DNA from: Niabella yanshanensis | GTDB taxonomy: Bacteria; Bacteroidota; Bacteroidia; Chitinophagales; Chitinophagaceae | NCBI RefSeq assembly: GCF_034424215.1 | Contig: NZ_CP139960.1 | Location: 3,782,001 to 3,846,000 of the forward strand | Direction of reading: 5' to 3' | Length of the DNA stretch: 64,000 nucleotides | Shown here: one piece after another, positions 17,083 through 28,150 of the stretch | Layout: each line of letters starts with the position of its first letter | How positions within the stretch are numbered: position 1 is the stretch's first letter | The notes under the pieces: model-generated | Told to the model about the DNA's origin: nothing | Database searches by the model: none | The model's input: the letters and a program-made list of their open reading frames with translations, nothing else | Made by a program: the position numbers and the translations under genes

Positions 17083-17703
17083 TTAACCCGAAATCTTCCT
17101 CTCTAATTCAGTCAGCCTGCTTTTGATCGCATCCAGCTCTTCAAAAATATTGCCGCCGGTCTCCTGGCTTAAAGGCTGGTACCAACCGAGGATCGTTTTC
17201 ACCAGGGTAATATCACTTATTGCAATTGTATGGTCTCCGATTATAAGGCAGCTGCGATCTATCTTTTTAGCCGAAGCAATAAATACAGTATCGCCGGTAT
17301 AAATAATTTGGGGTTCAGAAGCATTGAGTTCGCCCACCTTTGCTAATAATATTTGACTTTCCTGAAACTTGTTGTCAATAATAGTAGCATTTTTAATGCT
17401 AACCCAGTTGGCATTTTCGGGGAACAGGACGTCAGGATTCTCGTCACTGGATATTTTGGGAGCGATTTCGGGCACTTTAAAGTGGGAGACTTCGTTAACG
17501 GTTAATTTTTTATTGATAAAATCATCTACGCTGACACCAAATATCTGCGAAGCCCGCATCAGCGTCTCTATTTTCGGTTCTGCTCTCCCTTCCTCGTAAG
17601 AACTTACAGCGGCGCGGGTCAGGCCCAGTATATCTGCCAGGTGTTGCTGTGTATAATTCTTTAAGCTCCTTATCTTTTTAATATTAGAACCAAAATTCGA
17701 CAT
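17083..17703 (-). CDS. XRE-family transcriptional regulator with LexA-like C-terminal part
   Basis: 206 residues. Residues 5-60 form a Cro/CI-type helix-turn-helix (IKKIRSLKNYTQQHLADILG, LTRAAVSSYEEGRAEPKIET). The rest is beta-rich (VLFPENANWVSIKNATI, SQILLAKVGELNAS, YTGDTVFIASAKKIDRSCLI) and recalls the peptidase S24-like sensor domain, but no clear Ser-Lys pair is seen. A short coiled coil ends the protein. It is divergent from the YbjN-PspA-flotillin gene run, with 155 bases between starts, and is the best candidate regulator of that operon. Confidence 0.82.
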   Translation of the reverse strand: MSNFGSNIKKIRSLKNYTQQHLADILGLTRAAVSSYEEGRAEPKIETLMRASQIFGVSVDDFINKKLTVNEVSHFKVPEIAPKISSDENPDVLFPENANWVSIKNATIIDNKFQESQILLAKVGELNASEPQIIYTGDTVFIASAKKIDRSCLIIGDHTIAISDITLVKTILGWYQPLSQETGGNIFEELDAIKSRLTELERKISG

Positions 17704-17780
17704 GCTTATTCCGTTTTAGCAAAAATAAGTAACATTATTGCAAATAAAAATAACATTTTATAGATTTATTGCTAATAATA

Positions 17781-17812
17781 TTTGCATATTTGAAAAACTA
17801 TTTGTAGATTTG
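17781..17812 (+). promoter_or_regulatory. Promoter of the YbjN-PspA-flotillin operon
   Basis: TTTG (17781-17784), 20-base spacer, TAGATTTG (17805-17812): a close match to the Bacteroidota housekeeping promoter. It lies 47 bases before the first ATG of the operon. Confidence 0.65.
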
Positions 17813-17817
17813 TTTTC

Positions 17818-17831
17818 AGATTGCGCAATCT
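17818..17831. promoter_or_regulatory. Palindromic operator candidate at the operon start
   Basis: AGATTGCGCAATCT is a perfect 14-bp palindrome placed just after the -7 box, where the transcript should begin. A bound XRE dimer there would block transcription. The whole divergent spacer also repeats TATTGC / GCAAATA words. Confidence 0.5.
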
Positions 17832-17858
17832 ATTTGTAAAAAACTTAAAACACACTGA

Positions 17859-18245
17859 ATGGAGAGCTTTTTTAGTAAAGTGAAAAACTATGTTACCGAG
17901 CTTGACTATGAAGTTTTATACGAAAATGAAAACGATGGTATCATCGTTATAGACAAGCAGGAATATGGAATAAGAAATATGGTACTGGGCGTTGCTAACC
18001 CAATTTTAATTGTTGAACAGTACCTGTTTAATTGTAATAGCGACTCGGTTTACCGGGAGTTGCTAATCAAAAACAGGGATATTGTGCACGGCGCTTTTGT
18101 GCTGGATGAAACCGGCGAAAAAGTGATATTCCGAAACACATTACAGGTAGAGTCGCTTGACAAGCGCGAACTGGAGACCACCATTAACTCGTTATCGCTG
18201 TTACTTTCAGAATATTCCAATGAAATAATGAAGTTCAGCAAATAA
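17859..18245 (+). CDS. YbjN / CesT-chaperone-fold-like protein
   Basis: 128 residues, no signal or membrane segment. The alternating pattern (VKNYVTELDYEVLYENENDGIIVIDKQ, ILIVEQYLFNC, GAFVLDETGEKVIFRNTLQV) and the C-terminal helix LETTINSLSLLLSEYSNEIM fit the YbjN/type III chaperone fold. Such genes often stand first in PspA-flotillin clusters, where they are annotated as 'molecular chaperone Tir'-like. It is 24 bases upstream of the PspA gene. Function is unknown; binding a partner of the same operon is plausible. Confidence 0.65.
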   Translation: MESFFSKVKNYVTELDYEVLYENENDGIIVIDKQEYGIRNMVLGVANPILIVEQYLFNCNSDSVYRELLIKNRDIVHGAFVLDETGEKVIFRNTLQVESLDKRELETTINSLSLLLSEYSNEIMKFSK

Positions 18246-18269
18246 TTAATCATCATTAAAAAGAATGCC

Positions 18270-18995
18270 ATGAATATTTTTCAAAGACTTTTTAAAATAG
18301 GACAGGCGGAAACTCATTCGGCCATTGATAAACTCGAAGACCCTATCAAAATGATAGAACAGGGGTTGAGGGACCTGCATACCGAGCTGGATCAGGCTAA
18401 CAGGGCATTGGCAGAAGTAAAAGCCATGCATATACGCAGGGGAAATGAGTTGAAACAATATCGTGAAGAGCAGGAAACTATACACAACAAATCAGTATTA
18501 TTGCTCAAGAAAGCACAGGAAGGCGCAGTATCAATTGAAGAAGCTGACCAGCTGGTAAAGGAAAACCTCAGAAAGAAAGCGGATATTACCAGAAGAATAA
18601 CCGAAGCGGATCTGCAGGTGGCATCTTTGCAACAGCAGGTAACCGCGCTGGAAGGCAATGTTACCAAGATCAAGCTGAGCATTACCCAATGGGAGAGCGA
18701 ATTGAAAACACTGAAGGCCAGGGTTAAAGTAAGTAACGCTACGCAGCAGATCAATAAACAGCTGATGAAGATGGATTCCAATAGTGTGGCTTCTATGCTG
18801 GAACGTATGAAGGACAAAGTATTGGATGAGGAAGCACTGGCGCAGGCTTATGGGGAAATGAACCAGAAAGAAGAAAGTAACGATGAAAAAGTAAACAAGA
18901 TCATTGAAGAGATTTCAGTTGACGATGAACTGGCTAAACTGAAAAGCCAACTGGGCATTGACAATGCTAAAGAACAGGATAGCCCATCCTCCTGA
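18270..18995 (+). CDS. PspA/IM30 (ESCRT-III-like) family protein
   Basis: 241 residues, predicted almost all helical. The N-terminal amphipathic helix MNIFQRLFKIGQAETHSAID and EDPIKMIEQGLRDLHTELDQ are PspA/Vipp1 signatures. A long coiled coil (about 25-190) follows, then the C-terminal DELAKLKSQLG motif. PspA-type proteins polymerise on the inner membrane and belong to the ESCRT-III superfamily. They protect or remodel stressed membranes. The classical PspF/PspB/PspC partners are absent; the neighbours are YbjN, DUF1449, flotillin and AAA+ genes instead. Confidence 0.93.
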   Translation: MNIFQRLFKIGQAETHSAIDKLEDPIKMIEQGLRDLHTELDQANRALAEVKAMHIRRGNELKQYREEQETIHNKSVLLLKKAQEGAVSIEEADQLVKENLRKKADITRRITEADLQVASLQQQVTALEGNVTKIKLSITQWESELKTLKARVKVSNATQQINKQLMKMDSNSVASMLERMKDKVLDEEALAQAYGEMNQKEESNDEKVNKIIEEISVDDELAKLKSQLGIDNAKEQDSPSS

Positions 18996-19030
18996 TTGAT
19001 ATCCGATGTTTCCATAAAAAAAATTAAACA

Positions 19031-19468
19031 ATGAAGCTACTTGATAATAAGCCGGTCCAAACCTTTCTGGCTGTAGCGCCGGTACTACTCGCTGCCCTTT
19101 GTTTTATTGGTTATTTTGCTTTTTTTGTTTCGGTATTCGGGAGTATTAATCATGGCCACAAGGCAGAATGGTTACCGGTTAGCTTTTTAAATAACATGGA
19201 TGCCTTACTTCTCGCAGCTTTTGTGCTTCCTGTACTTTTTATACTAAGCACTGTTTATTTTGTGCTTCACGCAGCCCAAAATCCGCTGCTCGAAAAAGGT
19301 AATATGCGTGTTGTATGGATTTTGATCATCATTTTATTAAGCGTAGCCGGAAATTTTATTTATTGGCTGCTTGAAATACGAAACAAAAGAACCGAACCTG
19401 TAATTGGTGATGCGCTGCATCGTAAAAAACAGGCCGGATGGTCGGGTGGCTTGTATATGAAGAACTAA
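19031..19468 (+). CDS. Small three-helix membrane protein of the PspA operon
   Basis: 145 residues with three hydrophobic segments (about 10-36, 57-80, 95-115). The last, VVWILIIILLSVAGNFIYWL, resembles the PLDc_N/cardiolipin-synthase N-terminal helix pattern, but no catalytic domain follows. A short charged tail ends the protein. It lies between the PspA and YqiJ-like genes with 35- and 31-base spacers, so it is very likely co-transcribed. I do not recognise a function. Confidence 0.7.
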   Translation: MKLLDNKPVQTFLAVAPVLLAALCFIGYFAFFVSVFGSINHGHKAEWLPVSFLNNMDALLLAAFVLPVLFILSTVYFVLHAAQNPLLEKGNMRVVWILIIILLSVAGNFIYWLLEIRNKRTEPVIGDALHRKKQAGWSGGLYMKN

Positions 19469-19499
19469 CTATCAATCATCACATCAAATCCAAACCAAC

Positions 19500-20129
19500 A
19501 TGCAGGAGTTTTTTCACATCGCCTTTTCCAAAGTAAATTTTATAGCAACGCTGTTCGCCATATTGTTTGCTATTTACTGGATCATTACCATTTTTACGGG
19601 TCTTGATTTAGACGTGACCGATGCGGACGCGGATTTAGATCATGATCACCCCGAAACGCAGCATAGTGGTGATAGCGCCTGGGATAGTGTTTTGAAATTC
19701 TTTTATATCGGGGAGCTCCCTATTCTTTTTATCCTGTCATTGGTGAGTATTTTTATGTGGCTCATTATGGTAAACGTGACGCCCTTACTGGGGTGGGAAA
19801 ATAAATGGATTGGATTTGTATTATACCTGCCTGCATTTATAGCAGGGCTACTATTAACTAAAGTAGTGGCCATGCCTTTTTTAAAGCTATATCGCATGTT
19901 CAATCATAAGGGCGAGCAAAGCATCGACTTTATTGGCAAAGTAGGTACCGTAGTGGCCGCCATCAGGCAAAATAAGATAGGACAGATAGAGCTCAAACAT
20001 GAAAGCGATGTGATCCGCGTCTATGCGAAATCAATGACCGATGAAGAATATAAAACAGGAGAGCAGGTGATCATACTCGAAGCTTCCTCCGATGAAAAAT
20101 TTTATTTAGTACAATCTTACAACCTATAA
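19500..20129 (+). CDS. DUF1449 / YqiJ-like membrane protein with OB-fold tail
   Basis: 209 residues. An N-terminal helix (about 14-34) is followed by an acidic Asp/His stretch LDVTDADADLDHDHPE and two more helices (about 75-97 and 105-128). The C-terminal soluble domain (about 140-209) reads IDFIGKVGTVVAAIRQNKIGQIELKH and GEQVIILEASSDEKFYLVQS, matching the NfeD/YqiJ OB-fold. In E. coli yqiJ precedes yqiK, as here. NfeD-type domains partner with SPFH proteins, so this protein probably supports the adjacent flotillin. Confidence 0.85.
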   Translation: MQEFFHIAFSKVNFIATLFAILFAIYWIITIFTGLDLDVTDADADLDHDHPETQHSGDSAWDSVLKFFYIGELPILFILSLVSIFMWLIMVNVTPLLGWENKWIGFVLYLPAFIAGLLLTKVVAMPFLKLYRMFNHKGEQSIDFIGKVGTVVAAIRQNKIGQIELKHESDVIRVYAKSMTDEEYKTGEQVIILEASSDEKFYLVQSYNL

Positions 20130-20149
20130 CTATTAAAACAACTCAATTT

Positions 20150-22213
20150 ATGAATTACTCGTTCTACATTACTGCTGCTTTCTTAGTGCTTGTCGTTATC
20201 GGGCTTATTTTCTGGCTCATTTCAATGTACAAAAAAGTAAGCCAGGGTAAAGTGCTGATCCGTACCGGCCAGGGAGGCGTAAAAGTATTTTTCAATGCCG
20301 GCCTGGTTATCCCTATCCTGCATAAGCAGGAGGTAATGGATATATCTGTAAAAAAGCTGGATATAGAGCGTATGGGCCGGGAAGGGTTGATCTGTAAAGA
20401 CAATATGCGGGCCGATATCAAAGTAGCATTCTTCGTAAGGGTAAATAAGTCTGTAGATGATATCATTAACGTGGCGCAAACGATTGGCACCGACAGGGCT
20501 TCTTCTCATGAAACATTAACGGATCTCTTTGAGTCTAAATTCTCCGAGGCTCTGAAAACAGTTGGTAAGAAATTTGATTTCATAGAACTGTATGAAGCCC
20601 GCCGGGAGTTCAGGGAAGAGATCATCAATATTATAGGTACCGATTTGAACGGATATGTATTAGATGATTGTGCCATAGATTACCTGGAACAAACCCGTGT
20701 AGAGCTATTGGACAGGGAAAATATACTGGATGCAGAAGGTATTAAAAAAATTACGGAGTTAACCGCCGTGCAAAACATAAAAGCGAACCAGATCCGCAGG
20801 GATGAAGAACGCACCATTAAGAAGCAGGATGTAGAAACCCGCGAAGCGATATTGGAATTAGAGCGCCAGTTAAAAGAAAAAGAAGAATCGCAACGCAGGG
20901 AAATTGAAAATATTAAATCGCGTGAGCAGGCAGAAATTGATTCGGTGAAAGAAACGGAACGCCTGCGTTCGGAAAGGATCAGGATACAAACAGAAGAACA
21001 GCTGTTGATACAGGAAGAGAATAAGTTAAGGCAGGTAATTATTGCAGCTAAAAATAAAGAACGTGCAGAAGCCGTAGAAACAGAACGTGTATTGAAAGAT
21101 AAATACCTGGAGCTGACCGAGCGTGAGCGGGTGGTGGCGTTAGCCGGTATTGAAAAAGATAAGGCCGTTGAGATCGAAAAGAAAAATATTCAGGATGCGA
21201 TTCGTGAAAGGGTGGCGTTAGAAAAAACAGTGGTAGAAGAGCAGGAAAAAATAAAAGATGTACAGGTGCTGAAGGAGGCGAATCGCTTGAAAGACGCGGC
21301 TGTTATTAAGGCAAGTCAGGATGCTGAGGCTAAGATGATAGAAGAAGTGAAGAAAGCTGAATCGCAGGAGAAAGCGGCCGCTCACGAAGCGCAGAAAGTA
21401 TTGATTGAAGCGAATGCCCGCAAAGAAGCTGCCGGTAAAGAAGCGGAGGCGCGTAAAGTAATTGCTGATGCTAAGGCCAAAGAAGAGGCAACTGTAGGCA
21501 TGTCTGAAGCGCAGGTAATGCTTGCTAAGGCTGAGGCATTGGAAAGACAAGGTCTGGTTGATGCAGCAGTGATTGAAAAAACGGCGATTGCTGAAGCGGC
21601 GGGTATTGAAGCCAGGGCAGAAGCCAAACGCAAAGAAGGTTTGGCCGAAGCTGAAGTGATCCGTGAAAAAATTGTGGCTGAGGCAAAAGGTATCGATGAA
21701 AAATCAATGGCGATCAAGAAGCTGAATGATGCAGGTAAAGAGCATGAGGAGTTCCGTCTTACGTTGCAGAAGGATAAGGAAATTGCTTTGGCTGAGATCC
21801 ATATCCAGAAAGACATTGCGGAGGCGCAGGCCAGCGTATTAGGCGATGCCTTCAGAAATGCGAAGATCGACATTGTGGGGGGCGATAATACGTTCTTTGA
21901 TAATGTGGTGCGCCAGGTTTCTAATGGTAAGGGATTGGATAAGCTGATCGATAATTCTTATCATTTATCGCAGCTGTCTGATAATCTTTTAGGCCAGGGT
22001 GATGGCGAAGAGAACATAATTAGTAAGATCCGCAACCTGGCTGATAAATATGATGTAAGCAGCGAGGATATCAAGAATCTTTCTATAGCAGCATTAGTAG
22101 CCCGTATTCAAACATCAGCAACGGGGCAAGACAAAGGCTTTTTAAACAACTTGCTCAGCTTTGCAAAGGGATTGGGTATTGAGAATAAAAAGATACAGCA
22201 GTTGAAGGGGTAG
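20150..22213 (+). CDS. YqiK-type flotillin (SPFH/band 7 protein)
   Basis: 687 residues. One N-terminal membrane helix (about 5-27) precedes the SPFH domain (about 35-200: QGGVKVFFNAGLVIPILHKQ, MRADIKVAFFVRVN). A very long Ala/Glu/Lys coiled coil spans about residues 200-550, with the EA-rich repeats of flotillins (AEARKVIADAKAKEEA). The C-terminal region follows. Flotillins organise membrane microdomains. This is the long YqiK form. It starts 20 bases after the YqiJ-like gene. The next gene is separated by a 242-base spacer holding a repeat element. Confidence 0.93.
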   Translation: MNYSFYITAAFLVLVVIGLIFWLISMYKKVSQGKVLIRTGQGGVKVFFNAGLVIPILHKQEVMDISVKKLDIERMGREGLICKDNMRADIKVAFFVRVNKSVDDIINVAQTIGTDRASSHETLTDLFESKFSEALKTVGKKFDFIELYEARREFREEIINIIGTDLNGYVLDDCAIDYLEQTRVELLDRENILDAEGIKKITELTAVQNIKANQIRRDEERTIKKQDVETREAILELERQLKEKEESQRREIENIKSREQAEIDSVKETERLRSERIRIQTEEQLLIQEENKLRQVIIAAKNKERAEAVETERVLKDKYLELTERERVVALAGIEKDKAVEIEKKNIQDAIRERVALEKTVVEEQEKIKDVQVLKEANRLKDAAVIKASQDAEAKMIEEVKKAESQEKAAAHEAQKVLIEANARKEAAGKEAEARKVIADAKAKEEATVGMSEAQVMLAKAEALERQGLVDAAVIEKTAIAEAAGIEARAEAKRKEGLAEAEVIREKIVAEAKGIDEKSMAIKKLNDAGKEHEEFRLTLQKDKEIALAEIHIQKDIAEAQASVLGDAFRNAKIDIVGGDNTFFDNVVRQVSNGKGLDKLIDNSYHLSQLSDNLLGQGDGEENIISKIRNLADKYDVSSEDIKNLSIAALVARIQTSATGQDKGFLNNLLSFAKGLGIENKKIQQLKG

Positions 22214-22236
22214 GTTTACAGAGAATAAAGTGAAGG

Positions 22237-22336
22237 CGTCATTTCGGCCATCTTAGCCAGAGGCTACGAGGGAGAAATCTCTCAAGAGAGCGAGATTTCT
22301 CCTCTGTTTCTTTCAGAAACAATCGCCTAAATGACG
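22237..22336. repeat. Nested-palindrome intergenic repeat element
   Basis: Outer arms CGTCATTTCGGC (22237-22248) and GCCTAAATGACG (22325-22336) pair with one mismatch. Inner arms GGAGAAATCTC (22271-22281) and GAGATTTCTCC (22292-22302) pair perfectly over a 10-base loop. The whole 100-bp unit can fold into one long RNA hairpin. From memory, elements with the words CATTTCG, GAGAAATCTC and GAGATTTCTC are scattered through Bacteroidota genomes. This one separates the flotillin and ATPase genes. Confidence 0.75.
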
Positions 22337-22455
22337 TAAGTGCTGGCTAGTCCGTATCTTGAAATTAACCAGGGATGGTGAACCACCCGGAGTATATTTC
22401 TCCTCTTGTATTAAAAATTGTTTAGCCCTGTTTCATCGTTTCGAAGCACAATATT

Positions 22456-25400
22456 ATGTCAGAAAATATTACTGAAATACAAATGGATTCCGGCGCCTAT
22501 GAAGTCATTCTTCAAAGGCTGCAGGTACAGAAAAATAAAATACTGGATAATGTTGCGTTGCTGAATAAGGAACGTAAGGAAGTGTTTGGTGCAACATCAT
22601 TTGAATTATTGGCCAACCTTAGAATTAACACTGCCAATAATTGTATAGCCAAGGATATCCTGGCTCTGGGCAATCTTTGCATACTGGGTTATAATGTGCA
22701 ATTTGGCTTAAAGCAGGATATCAGTATCGCTGACGTATTTAGTATTTACCGGTTTGACGGAAAAGAGTTTGTCGCACAAGGCCTTTCTCTGTTAGAGCAG
22801 GATGAGTTTACCATAGAATTTAAAAACCTTTATAAGTACTACCGTAATGCTTCCTTCTCCCGCTTTCATATAAAAGGTAATTTGCTGTATATGGTGTTTC
22901 AGCAAACCGCCAATGTGCAGGATATAAAGGCTTTTAAATGGCTGATAGATGGAGAACGCCTGCAGTTTATGGATGGCCGCAGTGCGCATGAAGTGAAGTA
23001 CCCGTCGCAACATGACTTTACCTGGGAGAAAGCTACGCGCGATATGCAACGCACCGGTAAAAATCCGCATGTGTCCATATTGGACAGGGTTTTTGTGGAG
23101 ACCATTAACGGTGATCTGTCTATTAAGATAGAAGACAACACCGATACGGGAAAGGGAATTTATCATGAGGATGTAGAGCAGAAAGATCAGACCCTGGACG
23201 ATGGGGAGATCTGGTTTGCTGACCTGGGTAATATCATCCTGTTGCGCATTAAACCCTACCTTGAGGACGATCGTTATTTTATTTTTAACGACCGTTTGAA
23301 AACGGTAATGCGGGTGGATACACTGGCCGATGCCGGCTTGTTGTTGCCTGAAGGGCAAGGGATATTGTTATCCAACGGTTATTACTTGCAAAATGGAGAG
23401 CATAAAATATTTGACCGTAAGCTGGAGCAGGTTAAATTCAGCGGTCGTGTGGATGCGCCAAACGGGGAGGATTTTTTGTATGTGTTTTACCAGGAGAATA
23501 GTCATAGTTATATACTGCTTTCCTATAATGTAATTGAGCAGCAGGTGCAAACGCCTATTCTTTGTAATGGGTTCACCATTTTTGAAAACGGGCAGTTGTT
23601 GTATTTTATTTCTGAGAAAGATCCTACCCGCCATCACCTGATACAGGTTTGGCAAACGCCCTTTACTAAAGAAATGACGTTGAATGAAACCTTGAGTCAG
23701 CATCATTTGTACAAGATCGGTAACAAGTCCATTGTACAGGCGATGGCTGAAGTAAGAGAATTGTTGGTATTGCTCGATCAGCCGGATAACTACGAAGGGC
23801 TGTATGATGATATACTGGATAAAAGCCGGGAAATTTACGACTCTTATTTCTGGATGCAGGATAATAGTCATTACCAGTTTGCAGCAGCGCTAACTGATTT
23901 GAAACAAATAGCCACCAATGCCATTGATGAGTTTAAAAAAGTAGTGGAGATGCGGGCTAATGCTGCTCAACTCATGGCAGATGCGGAAGAAAAAGTTTCA
24001 AAGCTGATTTTCGATGTACGCACTTCAAAAAAGGAGACCCTGCAGGATTATGTAAAGCTTTTATCAGCCTTGCGATTATTGAAAGGTGAGCTGATCACTT
24101 TAAAAAAAGTAGCCTATACTAACGAAGCTGTATTGACGGAACATGAGAAAGTATTGACGGAGAAGTCGGATGAGCTGTCTAAAGCCTGTGTTGAATTCCT
24201 GCTTCGAGATGATGCGTTGCAGCCCTATCAGTTGCAAATACAGCAACTCCGGGAAACCCTGCCACAGGCGGCAAAAGTAGTGGAAGTAAAAGCCCTGGAG
24301 CAGCAAAGCACGGAGATAGCCGGCGCCTTAGAAATGTTGATCGATATCATCAATCAATTAAAAATTGATGATGCTTCACAGTCTGCAAAAATTATTGAAA
24401 ATATATCGCAGCTGTTTTCCAGCTTAAACCAGCTGCGCACACAAATACAAAACCGGCGTAATGAGCTTAATAAAAAAGAATCACAAGCCGAGTTCCAGGC
24501 GCAGATGACTTTGCTGGACCAGTCTATTATCAATTTCCTGGATATGGCTGACAGTGCGGAAAAGGTAAATGAGTATTTATCTAAATTGACGATACAATTA
24601 GAAGAGATCGAAATGCGGTTTGCCGACTGGGATGAAGTGCAGATACATACTTCGGAAAAGCGCCAGGTTTTGTACGATAGTTTTGAAGCGAGGAAATTGC
24701 AGTTGCTTGAGCAAAAAAATAAAAGAGCCGGTCAGTTACAACAGGCCGCAGAGCGCATCATAACCGGTGTAAAAAACAAGGCAAAAAATTTAGAAAGCGA
24801 ATCAGAGATCAATGCCTTCTTCTCCTCAGACCTGATGGTAGACCGGGCACGCCAGATGGCGCAGGAGCTGATTGCTATGGAAGATGCTACCAAAAGTGAG
24901 GAGATCTTACAACAATTACTGGTGGTGCAACAGGAAGCGATCCGCAACCTGAAGGACAGAAAAGAATTGTATGTGGACGGTGCGCAGGTACTGGCTATGG
25001 GTAAGCACCGGTTTGCCATACAGTCGCAGAACGTCACATTGACGCTTACGAACAGGGATGGCGTTTATAGCTATCATATCACCGGCACATCGTATTTTGA
25101 ACCGGTCCTTCATCCTGAGCTTGAATTGTTGAAGGCTGTAATGGAGCAGGAGTATGTATCGGAGACGAAAGCGGTTCCCCGAGCCGTGTACCTGGCCTGG
25201 CGTGTGTTACAGCAAAACCCGCCTGGTGTCGCCGTAACAACCGCTGAATTAGAACAACAAGTAAATACTTATGTAACCGCTCATCCTGCGGAGGGTTACG
25301 TAAAAGGCGTGCATGATAAAGATGCTTTTTTACTGGCTACACAGTGGTTTCGATTAAGAGATGATTTAGGCGTATTAAGCTTTTTGCCAGAGGAGCGCGC

Positions 25401-27294
25401 AATGGCGCATATCTTCTGGCATTATCTGCCGATGGCAGAAAGAGAAGACTTTACCAAAAAGATTACCGCAGTAAAATTTTTAAAAACACATTATAGTCAG
25501 CAAAAAGAGATTGAGCTTTTCATAAAGGAGGCGGCGCAAAGGATAGATATCTTTATTCAAAAAGAGTTCCCTTTTATAAAGCTTGATGCTGAAGCTGCTG
25601 CGGCCTATTTATACAGTAGTCCTGCGGGTGTTACTATGGTATCACATACCGATAACGAAATATTCGCAACCTTTAAAAAACATCTGAAAGCAGATTTTAT
25701 AGACAAGAAATACCAGGAGTATATGCAGGAATTGAAAGATAAACCTGCGATGCTATGGGCCTTGGTCGAGAGCTGGTTGTATCGTTTTTCGGTAAAAGAG
25801 CAGTTGGATATTCCTTCGGATTTGATGATGGAGCTCATTGCAATGTTAATTACTGAAGGCAACACGCGGATTGAAACAGACGAAGATCATCATGTGCTGG
25901 AAATTACGGGTCTCCAATCGGTGCAGCAGGATGGCAATGCGTTTGTGCTCGACCATTATTATTGGGTGAGGCTATTAAAAGATCATGATGCAGGTATTGT
26001 TCCGCAGTTTTTGCGTTTGCAGCAATTAAAGAAAGAATTGTTACTGGAGAAAGGCAAGCAGCTTCGGTTGGAGAATTTTAAAACGGAAGTGCTGACCTCT
26101 TTTGTAAGAAACCAGTTGATCAACCAGGTTTACTTTCCGCTGATAGGGGCTAATTTTTCTAAGCAAATAGGGGAGTCGGGCGATGCCAAACGCAGTGACC
26201 GTAGTGGTTTGTTATTACTGGTATCTCCTCCCGGTTATGGAAAAACCACTTTGATGGAGTATATAGCCGACAGGCTGGGACTGGTCTTTATTAAGATCAA
26301 CGGCCCTTCTCTAGGGCATAGTATCACATCAGTAGATCCGGGAGAAGCTAAAGACGCGGCTGCTAAAAGTGAGTTGCGCAAACTGAATCTGGCTTTGGAA
26401 ATGGGCGATAACGTTATGTTGTACATCGATGATATCCAGCATTGCAATACAGAGTTCCTGCAGAAATTTATTTCATTGGCAGATGGTCAGCGCCGGATGG
26501 ACGGCGTATTTAATAGCGAACCTAAAACCTATGACCTTCGAGGTAAGCGCTTTGCCCTGGTAATGGCGGGCAACCCTTACACAGAGTCGGGTGAGATATT
26601 TAAGATCCCGGATATGCTATCCAACCGTGCTGATATTTATAACCTGGGCGACATGACCTCTGTGAATAAAGCCCAGTTTGAAATGAGCATGCTGGAGAAT
26701 GCTTTAATGGCTAACACGCACCTGAGAAAGCTATCTCAAAGCGGTATGGAAAACCTGTATAAGCTGGTAGCTTATGTGCAGGATCCGGAAAGCAATTTGC
26801 CCAACCTGGACGGTAATTTCACGGCCTCCGAAATACAGGATTTTATTCAGGTGGTAAAGCATGCATTACGGGTAAGAGCTACCGTGCTCAAGGTGAACGA
26901 AACCTATATACAATCCGCCGGTGTAATGGATACTTTCAGAGAAGAGCCTCCCTTTAAGCTGCAGGGGTCTTATCGTAATATGAATAAAATATTGGCTTCT
27001 ATTATCCCGATTATGACCCCGGGAGAAGTGACGGATCTCGTACTCAATCATTATAAGAACGAGTCGCAAACGCTTACCAAAGATGCGGAAGCTAATCTTT
27101 TAAAGCTAAAGGAAATTATGGGTTTACTTACGCTAGAAGAAATCAGTCGCTGGGAGGATATTAAAAAAGAGTTTAAAAAATACCGTATGCTGAAGGGCTT
27201 GGGCGACCAGGATAAGTTCTCACAGATCATTGCGCAAATGAACCAGTTTGTAGATGGGCTGGAGGGGATTAAAGAAGTGCTGCGGGGGAAATAG
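22456..27294 (+). CDS. Giant DUF3686 AAA+ ATPase ('DNA repair ATPase' family)
   Basis: 1612 residues. The N-terminal third (about 1-450) is beta-rich and fits DUF3686, with repeated FDGKEF, ILFENGQLLYF-like strands. A coiled-coil region covers about 480-860. The AAA+ module is near the C-terminus: Walker A SPPGYGKTT (K at about 1263), Walker B VMLYIDD (D1325-D1326), sensor-1 Asn in VMAGNPYTESGE and an Arg-finger candidate in LSNRADIYNLGD. The usual Walker B Glu is replaced by Asp. Proteins of this type are annotated as DNA repair ATPases, but their steady company with PspA, YqiJ and flotillin genes suggests a membrane task. The gene is last in the run. Confidence 0.85.
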   Translation: MSENITEIQMDSGAYEVILQRLQVQKNKILDNVALLNKERKEVFGATSFELLANLRINTANNCIAKDILALGNLCILGYNVQFGLKQDISIADVFSIYRFDGKEFVAQGLSLLEQDEFTIEFKNLYKYYRNASFSRFHIKGNLLYMVFQQTANVQDIKAFKWLIDGERLQFMDGRSAHEVKYPSQHDFTWEKATRDMQRTGKNPHVSILDRVFVETINGDLSIKIEDNTDTGKGIYHEDVEQKDQTLDDGEIWFADLGNIILLRIKPYLEDDRYFIFNDRLKTVMRVDTLADAGLLLPEGQGILLSNGYYLQNGEHKIFDRKLEQVKFSGRVDAPNGEDFLYVFYQENSHSYILLSYNVIEQQVQTPILCNGFTIFENGQLLYFISEKDPTRHHLIQVWQTPFTKEMTLNETLSQHHLYKIGNKSIVQAMAEVRELLVLLDQPDNYEGLYDDILDKSREIYDSYFWMQDNSHYQFAAALTDLKQIATNAIDEFKKVVEMRANAAQLMADAEEKVSKLIFDVRTSKKETLQDYVKLLSALRLLKGELITLKKVAYTNEAVLTEHEKVLTEKSDELSKACVEFLLRDDALQPYQLQIQQLRETLPQAAKVVEVKALEQQSTEIAGALEMLIDIINQLKIDDASQSAKIIENISQLFSSLNQLRTQIQNRRNELNKKESQAEFQAQMTLLDQSIINFLDMADSAEKVNEYLSKLTIQLEEIEMRFADWDEVQIHTSEKRQVLYDSFEARKLQLLEQKNKRAGQLQQAAERIITGVKNKAKNLESESEINAFFSSDLMVDRARQMAQELIAMEDATKSEEILQQLLVVQQEAIRNLKDRKELYVDGAQVLAMGKHRFAIQSQNVTLTLTNRDGVYSYHITGTSYFEPVLHPELELLKAVMEQEYVSETKAVPRAVYLAWRVLQQNPPGVAVTTAELEQQVNTYVTAHPAEGYVKGVHDKDAFLLATQWFRLRDDLGVLSFLPEERAMAHIFWHYLPMAEREDFTKKITAVKFLKTHYSQQKEIELFIKEAAQRIDIFIQKEFPFIKLDAEAAAAYLYSSPAGVTMVSHTDNEIFATFKKHLKADFIDKKYQEYMQELKDKPAMLWALVESWLYRFSVKEQLDIPSDLMMELIAMLITEGNTRIETDEDHHVLEITGLQSVQQDGNAFVLDHYYWVRLLKDHDAGIVPQFLRLQQLKKELLLEKGKQLRLENFKTEVLTSFVRNQLINQVYFPLIGANFSKQIGESGDAKRSDRSGLLLLVSPPGYGKTTLMEYIADRLGLVFIKINGPSLGHSITSVDPGEAKDAAAKSELRKLNLALEMGDNVMLYIDDIQHCNTEFLQKFISLADGQRRMDGVFNSEPKTYDLRGKRFALVMAGNPYTESGEIFKIPDMLSNRADIYNLGDMTSVNKAQFEMSMLENALMANTHLRKLSQSGMENLYKLVAYVQDPESNLPNLDGNFTASEIQDFIQVVKHALRVRATVLKVNETYIQSAGVMDTFREEPPFKLQGSYRNMNKILASIIPIMTPGEVTDLVLNHYKNESQTLTKDAEANLLKLKEIMGLLTLEEISRWEDIKKEFKKYRMLKGLGDQDKFSQIIAQMNQFVDGLEGIKEVLRGK

Positions 27295-27340
27295 TAGTTC
27301 TTCGGAATACTTGTATTTTTGATCAGAATTGTGTTATAAC

Positions 27341-28150
27341 ATGAAATATTTATTATTCTTTTCCATTTTTCTTTCTTTTAAAATAGGTCATAGCCAGGAG
27401 GCAAAAACAAAATTATATATCATTGGAACCGTTCATGAGTCTTCTCCGATTCTAAATCCACAAATGTTATTTGATATATTGGATAATATAAAGCCGGATG
27501 TGCTGCTTCAGGAAAATGACAGCGAGCAAATTTCTAGCTATTTCAAAGATATACGCCCTAAATCGAATGAGCAGAATGCTTCTCTGATGTACTTAAAGAA
27601 ATATCCTGCAACATTAAACCTGCCATTTGAGTTTGAAGGGAGAAATAAGTATAGAAGGGATAATGGAATGGTTCCTACCGATAATCTTGCAATCAATCTT
27701 ATCGATAGCTTATATGAAAAAAACTTACTTAGCCCGGCAAATACGAAAATTTTCGAAAAATATAAGGAAGCTAATAAAGCATTAATTAATTTTTCCCAAA
27801 AAGATATTCAAACATTGAATTCAATAGAATTCGAGGTGGTCAATAGGCACCGCCAATTTATACAACATCATGAGCTGTCTAAAATAGTCAGTTCTGAAGA
27901 GATCTTTTCCCGGAAATTTGTGACAAAGCCAAACGGCGAAAAGATTTCATACCGAGAGGGGTACCAGCTTTGGTGTAATTTCTGGGATTTGAGAAATAAT
28001 ACGATGGCCATAAATATTATTAAAAAAGCAAACGAGCATAAAGGCAAAAAAATAGCGATTCTTACAGGTGTACAACATAAATACTATTTAAAGGAGCTAT
28101 TGGATAAGTACTATGACGGCAATTATGAAATTGTAGAATATTTCAAATAG
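27341..28150 (+). CDS. Secreted TraB/Tiki-superfamily-like protein
   Basis: 269 residues from the ATG at 27341; a TTG four codons earlier is in frame but less likely. A signal peptide (about 1-19, GHSQ) leads to KLYIIGTVHESSP and, near the C-terminus, AILTGVQHKYYLKELL. These two G-x-x-H motifs, plus an acidic LLQEND after the first, are the known core of the TraB/Tiki/EreA-like metal-dependent hydrolase superfamily. The middle is helical (NRHRQFIQHHELSKIV). Base composition is more AT-rich than its neighbours. Substrate unknown. Confidence 0.6.
   Translation: MKYLLFFSIFLSFKIGHSQEAKTKLYIIGTVHESSPILNPQMLFDILDNIKPDVLLQENDSEQISSYFKDIRPKSNEQNASLMYLKKYPATLNLPFEFEGRNKYRRDNGMVPTDNLAINLIDSLYEKNLLSPANTKIFEKYKEANKALINFSQKDIQTLNSIEFEVVNRHRQFIQHHELSKIVSSEEIFSRKFVTKPNGEKISYREGYQLWCNFWDLRNNTMAINIIKKANEHKGKKIAILTGVQHKYYLKELLDKYYDGNYEIVEYFK

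What the first reader, a model, noticed from the sequence alone, without database searches (positions are those of the whole stretch)
17083..27294. PspA / YqiJ / flotillin / giant AAA+ module with its own XRE switch
Six co-directional genes (YbjN-like, PspA, three-helix membrane protein, DUF1449/YqiJ, YqiK flotillin, 1612-residue DUF3686 AAA+) stand opposite an XRE regulator. The last gene is usually named a DNA repair ATPase, yet every neighbour is a membrane-remodelling protein. PspA is an ESCRT-III relative, and ESCRT-III polymers elsewhere are taken apart by an AAA+ ATPase (Vps4). The inference is that this large coiled-coil ATPase plays a disassembly role for PspA or flotillin assemblies. 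Neither PspF nor PspBC is present.
Basis: partly seen in the sequence, partly recalled or inferred. Interest (0 to 1): 0.72.

Follow-up and report, generated by a model that had tools for sequence, protein, structure and literature searches.

The report
Flotillin–AAA+ ATPase operon, PspA optional
A bacterium carries a known kind of membrane-stress operon, and comparing genomes suggests that its giant ATPase belongs with a special flotillin (a membrane scaffold protein) rather than with the membrane-repair protein PspA, which looks like an optional add-on.

Summary
The operon is real; coordinates and gene order are right (the "YbjN-like" gene is better called CesT/Tir-type). The arrangement is already in print: Ravi et al. 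[quoted passage not shown]

In 395 genomes of the window's class the ATPase occurs in 18; the matching flotillin in 17 of those and in 0 of 377 others. PspA occurs in all 18 but also in 34 of 377. Targeted search shows PspA can be absent: 15 of 26 ATPase genomes without a local PspA have no match anywhere, and the ATPase is still under strong purifying selection. ATPase-linked flotillins share a C-terminal region unlike the usual Pfam "Flot" domain; PspA shows no ATPase-specific tail (by eye). XRE–CesT–PspA behaves as a cassette also found without the ATPase.

So "Vps4 for PspA" is not supported as the core function. "Works on flotillin assemblies" is the better half, still untested inference. 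The AAA+ module is predicted not to be of the Vps4 class.

The parts
17083..17703 (-). XRE (HTH_3) regulator, divergent; N-terminal HTH conserved, C-terminal part variable
   Evidence: Pfam 2.9e-13; divergent XRE in 5 of 5 relatives; XRE family in 50 of 71 loci with >=7 kb upstream; conservation profile
17704..17858 (.). XRE-CesT intergenic region with TTAGCAA / TATTTGCA-type motifs, candidate operator/promoter
   Evidence: TTAGCAA in 38 of 53 such regions (5.3 expected), TATTTGCA in 30 of 53 (2.6 expected); sequence; related species are not independent
17859..18245 (+). CesT/Tir-type chaperone (PF22550), weakly YbjN-like
   Evidence: Pfam 1.2e-51; found in exactly the same loci as PspA
18270..18995 (+). 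PspA/IM30 (ESCRT-III superfamily); only PF04012 match in the genome
   Evidence: Pfam 9.9e-40; single genomic match; PDB matches to Vipp1/PspA
   Evidence: found only in the window and L014 Niabella hibiscisoli among loci searched
19500..20129 (+). YqiJ/NfeD-like membrane partner of flotillin
   Evidence: weak Pfam YqiJ_N; family present with Flot in 71 of 73 assessable loci
20150..22213 (+). long flotillin (SPFH/Band_7)
   Evidence: Band_7 1.1e-12 on aa 1-250; single copy in genome by the linked-flotillin model
21662..22213 (+). ATPase-associated flotillin C-terminal region (aa ~505-687; conserved core aa ~530-605 with IDIVGG...FFD...GK)
   Evidence: 66 of 66 training-group and 25 of 25 held-out linked flotillins, 0 of 12 unlinked, one of these truncated; conservation; no significant Pfam match
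22214..22455 (+). 242-bp gap with strong predicted RNA hairpins (core inverted repeat 22272-22301, single copy in genome)
   Evidence: fold z -4.2 (on 22225-22355); pattern single copy
22456..27294 (+). giant AAA+ ATPase, 1612 aa: N-terminal helix, beta-propeller (DUF3686), middle part with DUF7902 (coiled coil per reader and Ravi et al.; not tested here), C-terminal AAA+
   Evidence: Pfam; propeller model pLDDT 90; AAA+ model pLDDT 79.6
22549..23850 (+). DUF3686 beta-propeller (aa 32-465)
   Evidence: Pfam 3e-173; many Foldseek top hits are WD40/propeller folds by title, low TM-scores
26041..27291 (+). AAA+ module (aa 1196-1612): Walker A SPPGYGKTT, Walker B YxDDIQH, sensor-1 AGNPYTE, arginine-finger candidate NRxD, predicted pre-sensor-1 beta-hairpin (motif names assigned by me)
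   Evidence: SPPGYGKTT, DDIQH and AGNPYTE invariant in 77 of 77 aligned sequences; hairpin strands in model

Best explanation
Two modules joined in one operon. Machine module: YqiJ (NfeD-like membrane protein), a long flotillin that forms a membrane-attached cage, and a dedicated cytosolic AAA+ ATPase that engages the flotillin through its special C-terminal region and uses ATP to open, take apart or recycle the cage, or to act on proteins held in it. Regulator/repair module: XRE, CesT chaperone and PspA, which senses membrane stress, switches the operon on and adds PspA to the same membrane sites, but is dispensable. Shown by sequence: near-exclusive ATPase-flotillin association, the flotillin C-terminal region that tracks the ATPase, the optional PspA cassette, and an ATPase under selection without PspA. 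Inferred: cage formation (flotillin family knowledge), physical docking, remodelling, and XRE control.
For: Class sample: flotillin in 17 of 18 ATPase genomes and 0 of 377 others at E<=1e-20; phylum sample: >700-bit flotillin in exactly the 6 ATPase genomes of 247. Flotillin upstream in 73 of 75 loci and directly upstream in 12 of 12 replicons from Pseudomonas, Streptomyces, Nonomuraea, Deinococcus, Proteus, Halomonas, Vibrio, Photobacterium and Hymenobacter; both orphan ATPases have YqiJ-Flot elsewhere. Flotillin C-terminal model hits 25 of 25 held-out linked proteins, 0 of 12 unlinked; 11 of 11 unlinked scanned carry Pfam Flot instead. ATPase omega 0.031-0.045 in four pairs from genomes with no PspA match versus 0.031-0.043 in three pairs with PspA. 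CesT-PspA occurs without the machine beside it in 8 of 8 chosen loci, with a similar PspA tail.
Against: No interaction, ATPase or membrane data. All 18 ATPase genomes of the class sample also carry a PspA over the cut-off (Fisher 7.4e-18), so PspA is strongly associated too. The special flotillin is one lineage, so its C-terminal region may be an inherited trait rather than a docking site; weak PF15975 similarity in 4 of 10 linked pieces (E 0.056-0.37) suggests it may be a diverged Flot domain rather than a new one; related genomes are not independent. One of 18 ATPase genomes (G601, 1670 contigs) and L052's genome gave no flotillin match. Flotillin and ATPase are apart in L079 and L085. Walker B has DD where most AAA+ proteins have DE (recalled), so hydrolysis could be slow. 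In P. aeruginosa, deleting the matching flotillin had only slight effects (PMC13086221, passages).
Confidence: 0.5

Rival explanations
1. Vps4-like: the ATPase disassembles PspA (ESCRT-III-like) polymers, with flotillin as the membrane platform.
For: PspA is an ESCRT-III relative; 18 of 18 class-sample ATPase genomes have a PspA, 12 of them on the same contig near the ATPase and one more beside the flotillin; operon PspAs share a conserved acidic/leucine C-terminal helix; ESCRT-like role proposed in print.
Against: 15 of 26 ATPase genomes without local PspA have no match, and the ATPase is similarly constrained in the four pairs tested there. The PspA tail looks the same, by eye, in 8 of 8 PspAs without the ATPase beside them. 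No MIT domain; predicted pre-sensor-1 hairpin, not Vps4-class.
Confidence: 0.12
2. Assembly rather than disassembly: the ATPase is a chaperone that builds or quality-controls the YqiJ-flotillin cage or inserts clients, as MoxR-type AAA+ proteins do for their targets (MoxR role recalled).
For: Fold search ranks MCM, RuvB and MoxR-type NorQ/CbbQ high; a beta-propeller suits an adaptor role.
Against: TM-scores below 0.5; a VWA partner, typical of MoxR systems (recalled), was not searched for; direction of action cannot be told from sequence.
Confidence: 0.2
3. Co-regulated stress genes that do not touch: the operon only ensures joint expression.
For: One XRE with shared motifs; one or two genes can stand between Flot and ATPase in Pontibacter; ATPase and Flot sit apart in two genomes.
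Against: Near-perfect co-occurrence even when unlinked and the flotillin region that tracks the ATPase suggest functional dependence.
Confidence: 0.15
4. DNA repair ATPase, as annotated.
For: The annotated name only.
Against: No neighbour is named as a DNA-repair gene in the six of twelve plasmid stretches that carry annotation (many neighbours are 'hypothetical'); constant linkage to YqiJ-flotillin. DNA-repair neighbours were not searched for in the 80 contig loci.
Confidence: 0.02

Closest known systems
CesT/Tir-PspA + band-7/flotillin + YqiJ/YuaF + AAA+ (coiled coil, beta-propeller) operon, Ravi et al. 2024, PMC11237479 section 19 (read whole)
   Same: Same genes and domain architecture; abbreviated operons without PspA are also described there
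   Different: Section 19 does not mention an XRE gene for this group, a special flotillin C-terminus or PspA-free genomes; it suggests abbreviated operons may use PspA from elsewhere, which one search does not bear out for 15 of 26 genomes; here an extra 3TM gene
P. aeruginosa bac operon (bacA-F), PMC10948618 and PMC13086221 (passages)
   Same: CesT-like, PspA, NfeD, flotillin, then two further genes; co-transcribed; PA3728, numbered next to PA3729 of the bac cluster, is listed as ATPase in PMC8190622
   Different: BacA is of the YjfI/DUF2170 type; putative sigma-54 site proposed upstream of bacA; that bacE is the DUF3686 ATPase is my inference
HflK/HflC-FtsH (SPFH cage with an AAA+ protease)
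   Same: SPFH scaffold with a dedicated AAA+ partner (abstract in search listing)
   Different: No protease domain among Pfam hits here; different SPFH subfamily and AAA+ class
ESCRT-III/Vps4
   Same: PspA superfamily member plus an AAA+ ATPase
   Different: ATPase lacks a MIT hit and is predicted to have a pre-sensor-1 hairpin; persists without PspA
B. subtilis YdjI (SPFH) with PspA, PMC8581546 (abstract read)
   Same: SPFH protein needed to place PspA on the membrane
   Different: Abstract names no AAA+ ATPase; other membrane partners, YdjG/H

Membership tests
Ravi et al. CesT/Tir-PspA-flotillin-AAA+ operon group | CesT/Tir and PspA dyad | tested here: met
   PF22550 1.2e-51, PF04012 9.9e-40
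Ravi et al. [quoted passage not shown]
   Band_7 1.1e-12; YqiJ family by relatives, though the window's own Pfam match is weak; TM and coiled coil not predicted here
Ravi et al. [quoted passage not shown]
   Propeller model pLDDT 90; AAA Pfam 2.8e-7; coiled coil not tested
Vps4 family | N-terminal MIT domain | tested here: not met
   No MIT among Pfam hits to E 1; N-terminus is modelled as a propeller
Vps4 family | classical AAA module without pre-sensor-1 hairpin (class rule recalled) | tested here: not met
   Predicted strands 153-157/160-164 between the helix after Walker B and the sensor-1 strand, pLDDT 83-85; a prediction, no solved structure
Vps4 family | acts on an ESCRT-III polymer | not testable with these tools
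   needs biochemistry
MoxR / helix-2-insert AAA+ | fold and sensor-1/arginine-finger pattern of the clade | tested here: inconclusive
   NorQ, CbbQ, MCM and RuvB rank high but TM below 0.5; sensor-1 NP and NRxD motifs, likeness to MoxR recalled
FtsH-type SPFH partner | metalloprotease domain | tested here: not met
   no peptidase Pfam hit
Canonical flotillin (Band_7 + Pfam Flot C-terminal domain) | PF15975 domain | tested here: not met
   window C-terminal pieces have no PF15975 hit; best in other linked pieces 0.056; 11 of 11 unlinked scanned have it
PSP response (PspF/PspBC type) | PspF or PspB/C in the operon | tested here: not met
   none among the seven proteins; elsewhere in the genome not tested

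The most novel reading that the evidence does not exclude
A dedicated energy-driven flotillin machine: one flotillin lineage remodelled (diverged or exchanged) its C-terminal domain into a dock for a propeller-armed AAA+ ATPase, giving bacteria an ATP-powered SPFH cage that is not protease-linked, onto which stress cassettes (XRE-CesT-PspA here) plug in.
Probability: 0.4. Interest if true: 0.75.

Novelty: new member of a known kind. Interest (0 to 1): 0.42.

Why it matters
How flotillin assemblies are opened, recycled or used is an open question. If a dedicated ATPase serves one flotillin lineage through a defined region, a single binding assay and one flotillin-truncation strain would test whether flotillin cages are ATP-driven machines. 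It would also move a 'DNA repair ATPase' family to membrane biology and correct the simple PspA/Vps4 analogy.

Tried and rejected
Considered and dropped: DNA repair (name only). Vps4 membership (no MIT hit, predicted pre-sensor-1 hairpin). Defence system: PADLOC gave only generic HTH hits (XRE) and coiled-coil hits (PspA), and none for CesT, the 3TM protein, YqiJ, Flot or ATPase. An ATPase-specific PspA tail: by eye a similar tail occurs in 8 of 8 PspAs without the ATPase operon beside them. Mobile-repeat origin of the Flot-ATPase gap: the exact core pattern is single copy in the genome (with an 11-base spacer found nothing because the real spacer is 10).

Led nowhere: PDB sequence matches to the AAA+ part cover mostly about 40 residues round the P-loop; PDB search with the flotillin profile found only QmcA, over coiled-coil-like positions 358-473; the Pfam scan of full-length linked flotillins is nearly blind (Band_7 in 1 of 12), so pieces were scanned instead. 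Literature: 'DUF3686' is in 0 papers of the library. A mirror-tree test was not run.

Rows set aside: 5 of 80 loci too short upstream for flotillin (L050, L052, L067, L083, L089), 9 of 80 with under 7 kb upstream left out of the PspA count; L014 and L033 ATPases and L104 left out of the tree, and 9 of 95 tree rows unlabelled; one of 12 unlinked flotillins (L109) is cut at a contig end, so its C-terminus cannot be judged, and it was left out of the Pfam test (11 of 12 scanned); L046 was not held; one dN/dS pair (L080-L070) was saturated. Some loci are the same or nearly the same species (L011/L017, L012/L023, L095/L104). My local PspA model was built from Bacteroidota-type PspAs and could miss a diverged local PspA.
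Full report
OBSERVATION. Family scans give HTH_3, CesT_Tir_1, PspA_IM30, an unassigned small protein, a weak YqiJ_N match, a Band_7 protein (seen only when the N-terminal 250 aa are scanned alone) and DUF3686 + DUF7902 + AAA. The genome holds one DUF3686, one PF04012 match and one match to the linked-flotillin model. The nearest named relative found is Niabella hibiscisoli (ATPase 90% identical). The five other DUF3686 genomes of a phylum sample all keep XRE divergent from CesT-PspA-YqiJ-Flot-ATPase; none of the five gave a hit for the 3TM gene.

ALREADY IN PRINT. Ravi et al. 2024 (PMC11237479; read: outline, sections 14 and 19, and passages; [quoted passage not shown] So neither the arrangement nor the ESCRT analogy is new. 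Of the papers listed, none other describes the flotillin-ATPase pairing in its title, the start of its abstract, or the passages I opened (PMC9239133, PMC10936438, PMC2636767, PMC13086221); the listings are capped and the library holds only open-licence papers.

WHICH PARTNER DOES THE ATPASE FOLLOW? Eighty ATPase loci were fetched (the best 80 of 519 confirmed, so close relatives are favoured). Flotillin is upstream on the same strand in 73 of 75 assessable loci, YqiJ in 71 of 73, PspA in 46 of 71 with at least 7 kb upstream; CesT and PspA occur in exactly the same loci; XRE in 50 of 71, including four Chryseobacterium loci that keep XRE but lack CesT-PspA. Twelve further loci from the plasmid collection (all 12 fetched) cover Gammaproteobacteria, Actinomycetota, Deinococcota and Bacteroidota: flotillin directly upstream in 12 of 12, YqiJ in 11, PspA in 2. 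The two exceptions among the 75, L079 (Cloacimonetes MAG) and L085 (Bacteroidia MAG), have the flotillin with its YqiJ elsewhere in the genome. The genome of L052, a MAG whose contig starts 612 bases before the ATPase, gave no flotillin match.

WHOLE-GENOME CO-OCCURRENCE. In 247 genomes of the phylum, DUF3686 is in 6; flotillin hits above 700 bits are in the same 6, while 11 others reach only 207-313 bits; all 6 have PspA, and 96 of 247 genomes have one over the cut-off. In 395 genomes of the class: ATPase 18; flotillin at E<=1e-20 in 17, all among the 18, none in the other 377 (Fisher 6.5e-29); PspA over cut-off in 52, including all 18 (Fisher 7.4e-18). The missing flotillin is in G601, a 1670-contig draft with the ATPase match starting at base 520 of its contig. 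This sample tells against a simple 'PspA does not matter'. But 34 of 377 genomes without the ATPase have a PspA too. Of the 18, 12 have PspA on the ATPase's contig within about 5 kb and one (G548) beside the flotillin on another contig; in 5 (G280, G352, G459, G601, G617) it is on another contig or far away (for G601 linkage cannot be judged) and scores like the PspA of relatives of the same family without the ATPase (G381, G547, G566). G352 appears to be the genome of L085 (same flotillin coordinates). P-values ignore relatedness.

PSPA-FREE GENOMES. For the 25 loci with at least 7 kb upstream and no local PspA, plus L079, the whole genomes were searched for PF04012: 15 of 26 have no match at E<=1e-3, one has only a sub-cut-off match inside an 836-aa frame, 10 have a PspA over the cut-off elsewhere; 4 of 4 controls with a local PspA were found (a fifth, L046, was not held). 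By the record titles eight of the 15 are isolates (four Chryseobacterium, four Pontibacter) and seven are MAGs or uncultured; the tool gave no completeness for them. In four pairs from PspA-free genomes dN/dS of the ATPase is 0.031-0.045, against 0.031-0.043 in three PspA-bearing pairs (one further pair was saturated). On the ATPase tree the local-PspA label changes at least five times (FastTree, long branches flagged by the program). PspA-less Chryseobacterium and Pontibacter sit among PspA-bearing relatives, which suggests loss; the unrooted count cannot prove direction.

A FLOTILLIN REGION THAT TRACKS THE ATPASE. Matches of unlinked flotillins to the flotillin model stop by position 510 of 687. 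A model of the last ~180 residues, built from up to 60 Bacteroidota linked proteins, hits 66 of 66 of that group (which includes the training rows) and 25 of 25 held-out proteins, mostly from other phyla (E <= 4e-12; two are near-identical Proteus rows, one, L118, lies apart from its ATPase), and 0 of 12 unlinked flotillins, including E. coli YqiK (one unlinked, L109, is cut by a contig end). Unlinked ones carry the Pfam Flot domain in 11 of 11 scanned; C-terminal pieces of ten linked ones have no significant match, though four show weak PF15975 similarity (E 0.056-0.37), so the region may be a far-diverged Flot domain rather than a new one. Positions G577, G578 and S603 of the window protein are invariant in the 48 aligned. 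By contrast, the conserved PspA tail looks alike, by eye, in 8 of 8 PspAs chosen because no ATPase lies beside them (seven come from genomes without a DUF3686 match, some incomplete; one, L127, is a second copy in an ATPase genome).

A PLUG-IN CASSETTE. In those eight loci CesT-PspA (with XRE in six) stands alone (L123, L124, L126) or with a polyamine-type set (L120, L121, L122, L125, L127). Pfam on nine proteins of L121, L122 and L125 gives spermine/spermidine synthase, DUF350/YjfL, DUF4178 and AdoMet decarboxylase; L120 and L127 were judged by the look of their ORFs. This matches the second group of Ravi et al., with AdoMet decarboxylase in addition. So XRE-CesT-PspA is a module that joins different effector sets. 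The divergent promoter regions share TTAGCAA (38 of 53, 5.3 expected) and TATTTGCA (30 of 53, 2.6 expected), a candidate XRE operator.

ANATOMY OF THE ATPASE. The N-terminal model is a beta-propeller (pLDDT 90; many Foldseek top hits are WD40/propeller folds by title, with low TM-scores). The AAA+ model (pLDDT 79.6) has two strands (153-157, 160-164) between the helix after Walker B and the sensor-1 strand, that is, a pre-sensor-1 hairpin, which classical AAA proteins such as Vps4 lack (rule recalled, not looked up). Foldseek ranks MCM, RuvB and the MoxR-type NorQ/CbbQ; the only classical-AAA entry that I see among the 50 rows shown is Rix7. By sequence alone, however, the best PDB matches are CDC48/p97 and Rix7, over the P-loop only. 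TM-scores are below 0.5, so the clade stays open. Walker A SPPGYGKTT, DDIQH and AGNPYTE are invariant in 77 of 77: the usual catalytic Glu is Asp, as in DnaA (recalled).

MECHANISM. Shown: near-exclusive co-occurrence of ATPase and one flotillin lineage, a C-terminal flotillin region specific to it, dispensable PspA, selection on the ATPase without PspA. Inferred: the ATPase docks on that region and remodels the flotillin cage or its clients; XRE-CesT-PspA provides stress input. Experimental hints come from the P. aeruginosa bac operon (passages read: PMC10948618; PMC13086221): six genes co-transcribed; loss of the CesT-like BacA raises the other products 6.1- to 13.5-fold; loss of the flotillin lowers biofilm by about 20% only. 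That bacE is this ATPase is inferred from gene order and from PA3728 being listed as 'ATPase' (PMC8190622, passage). In B. subtilis an SPFH protein places PspA on the membrane (PMC8581546, abstract), which fits PspA acting downstream of an SPFH platform.

VERDICT.

Noticed in passing
22214-22455: The only large gap in the operon holds nested inverted repeats (RNA fold z -4.2; exact core single copy in the genome); possibly sets the flotillin:ATPase ratio.
   Followed up: partly
19031-19468: Small protein seen only in the window and Niabella hibiscisoli among the loci searched, exactly at the junction of the PspA cassette and the YqiJ-Flot-ATPase set.
   Followed up: partly
L093 (plasmid pQBR103): A large plasmid carries YjfI-PspA, a rhomboid protease, a polyamine-type set and flotillin-ATPase in one run: cassette mixing on a plasmid.
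   Followed up: no
L014: ATPase of Niabella hibiscisoli is split over three reading frames; sequencing error or decay not resolved.
   Followed up: no
L110 4924-8091: A PspA-like ORF (by position the PF04012 match)-YqiJ-flotillin run without the ATPase, with an ordinary (PF15975) flotillin.
   Followed up: partly
27329-28150: ORF just downstream with only sub-cut-off DUF5694 / haem-binding Tiki-superfamily matches; not treated as part of the operon.
   Followed up: no
window 22456-27294 (ATPase family): Invariant Walker B with two Asp (DD) in 77 of 77, unusual for a motor (recalled); may mean slow hydrolysis.
   Followed up: no
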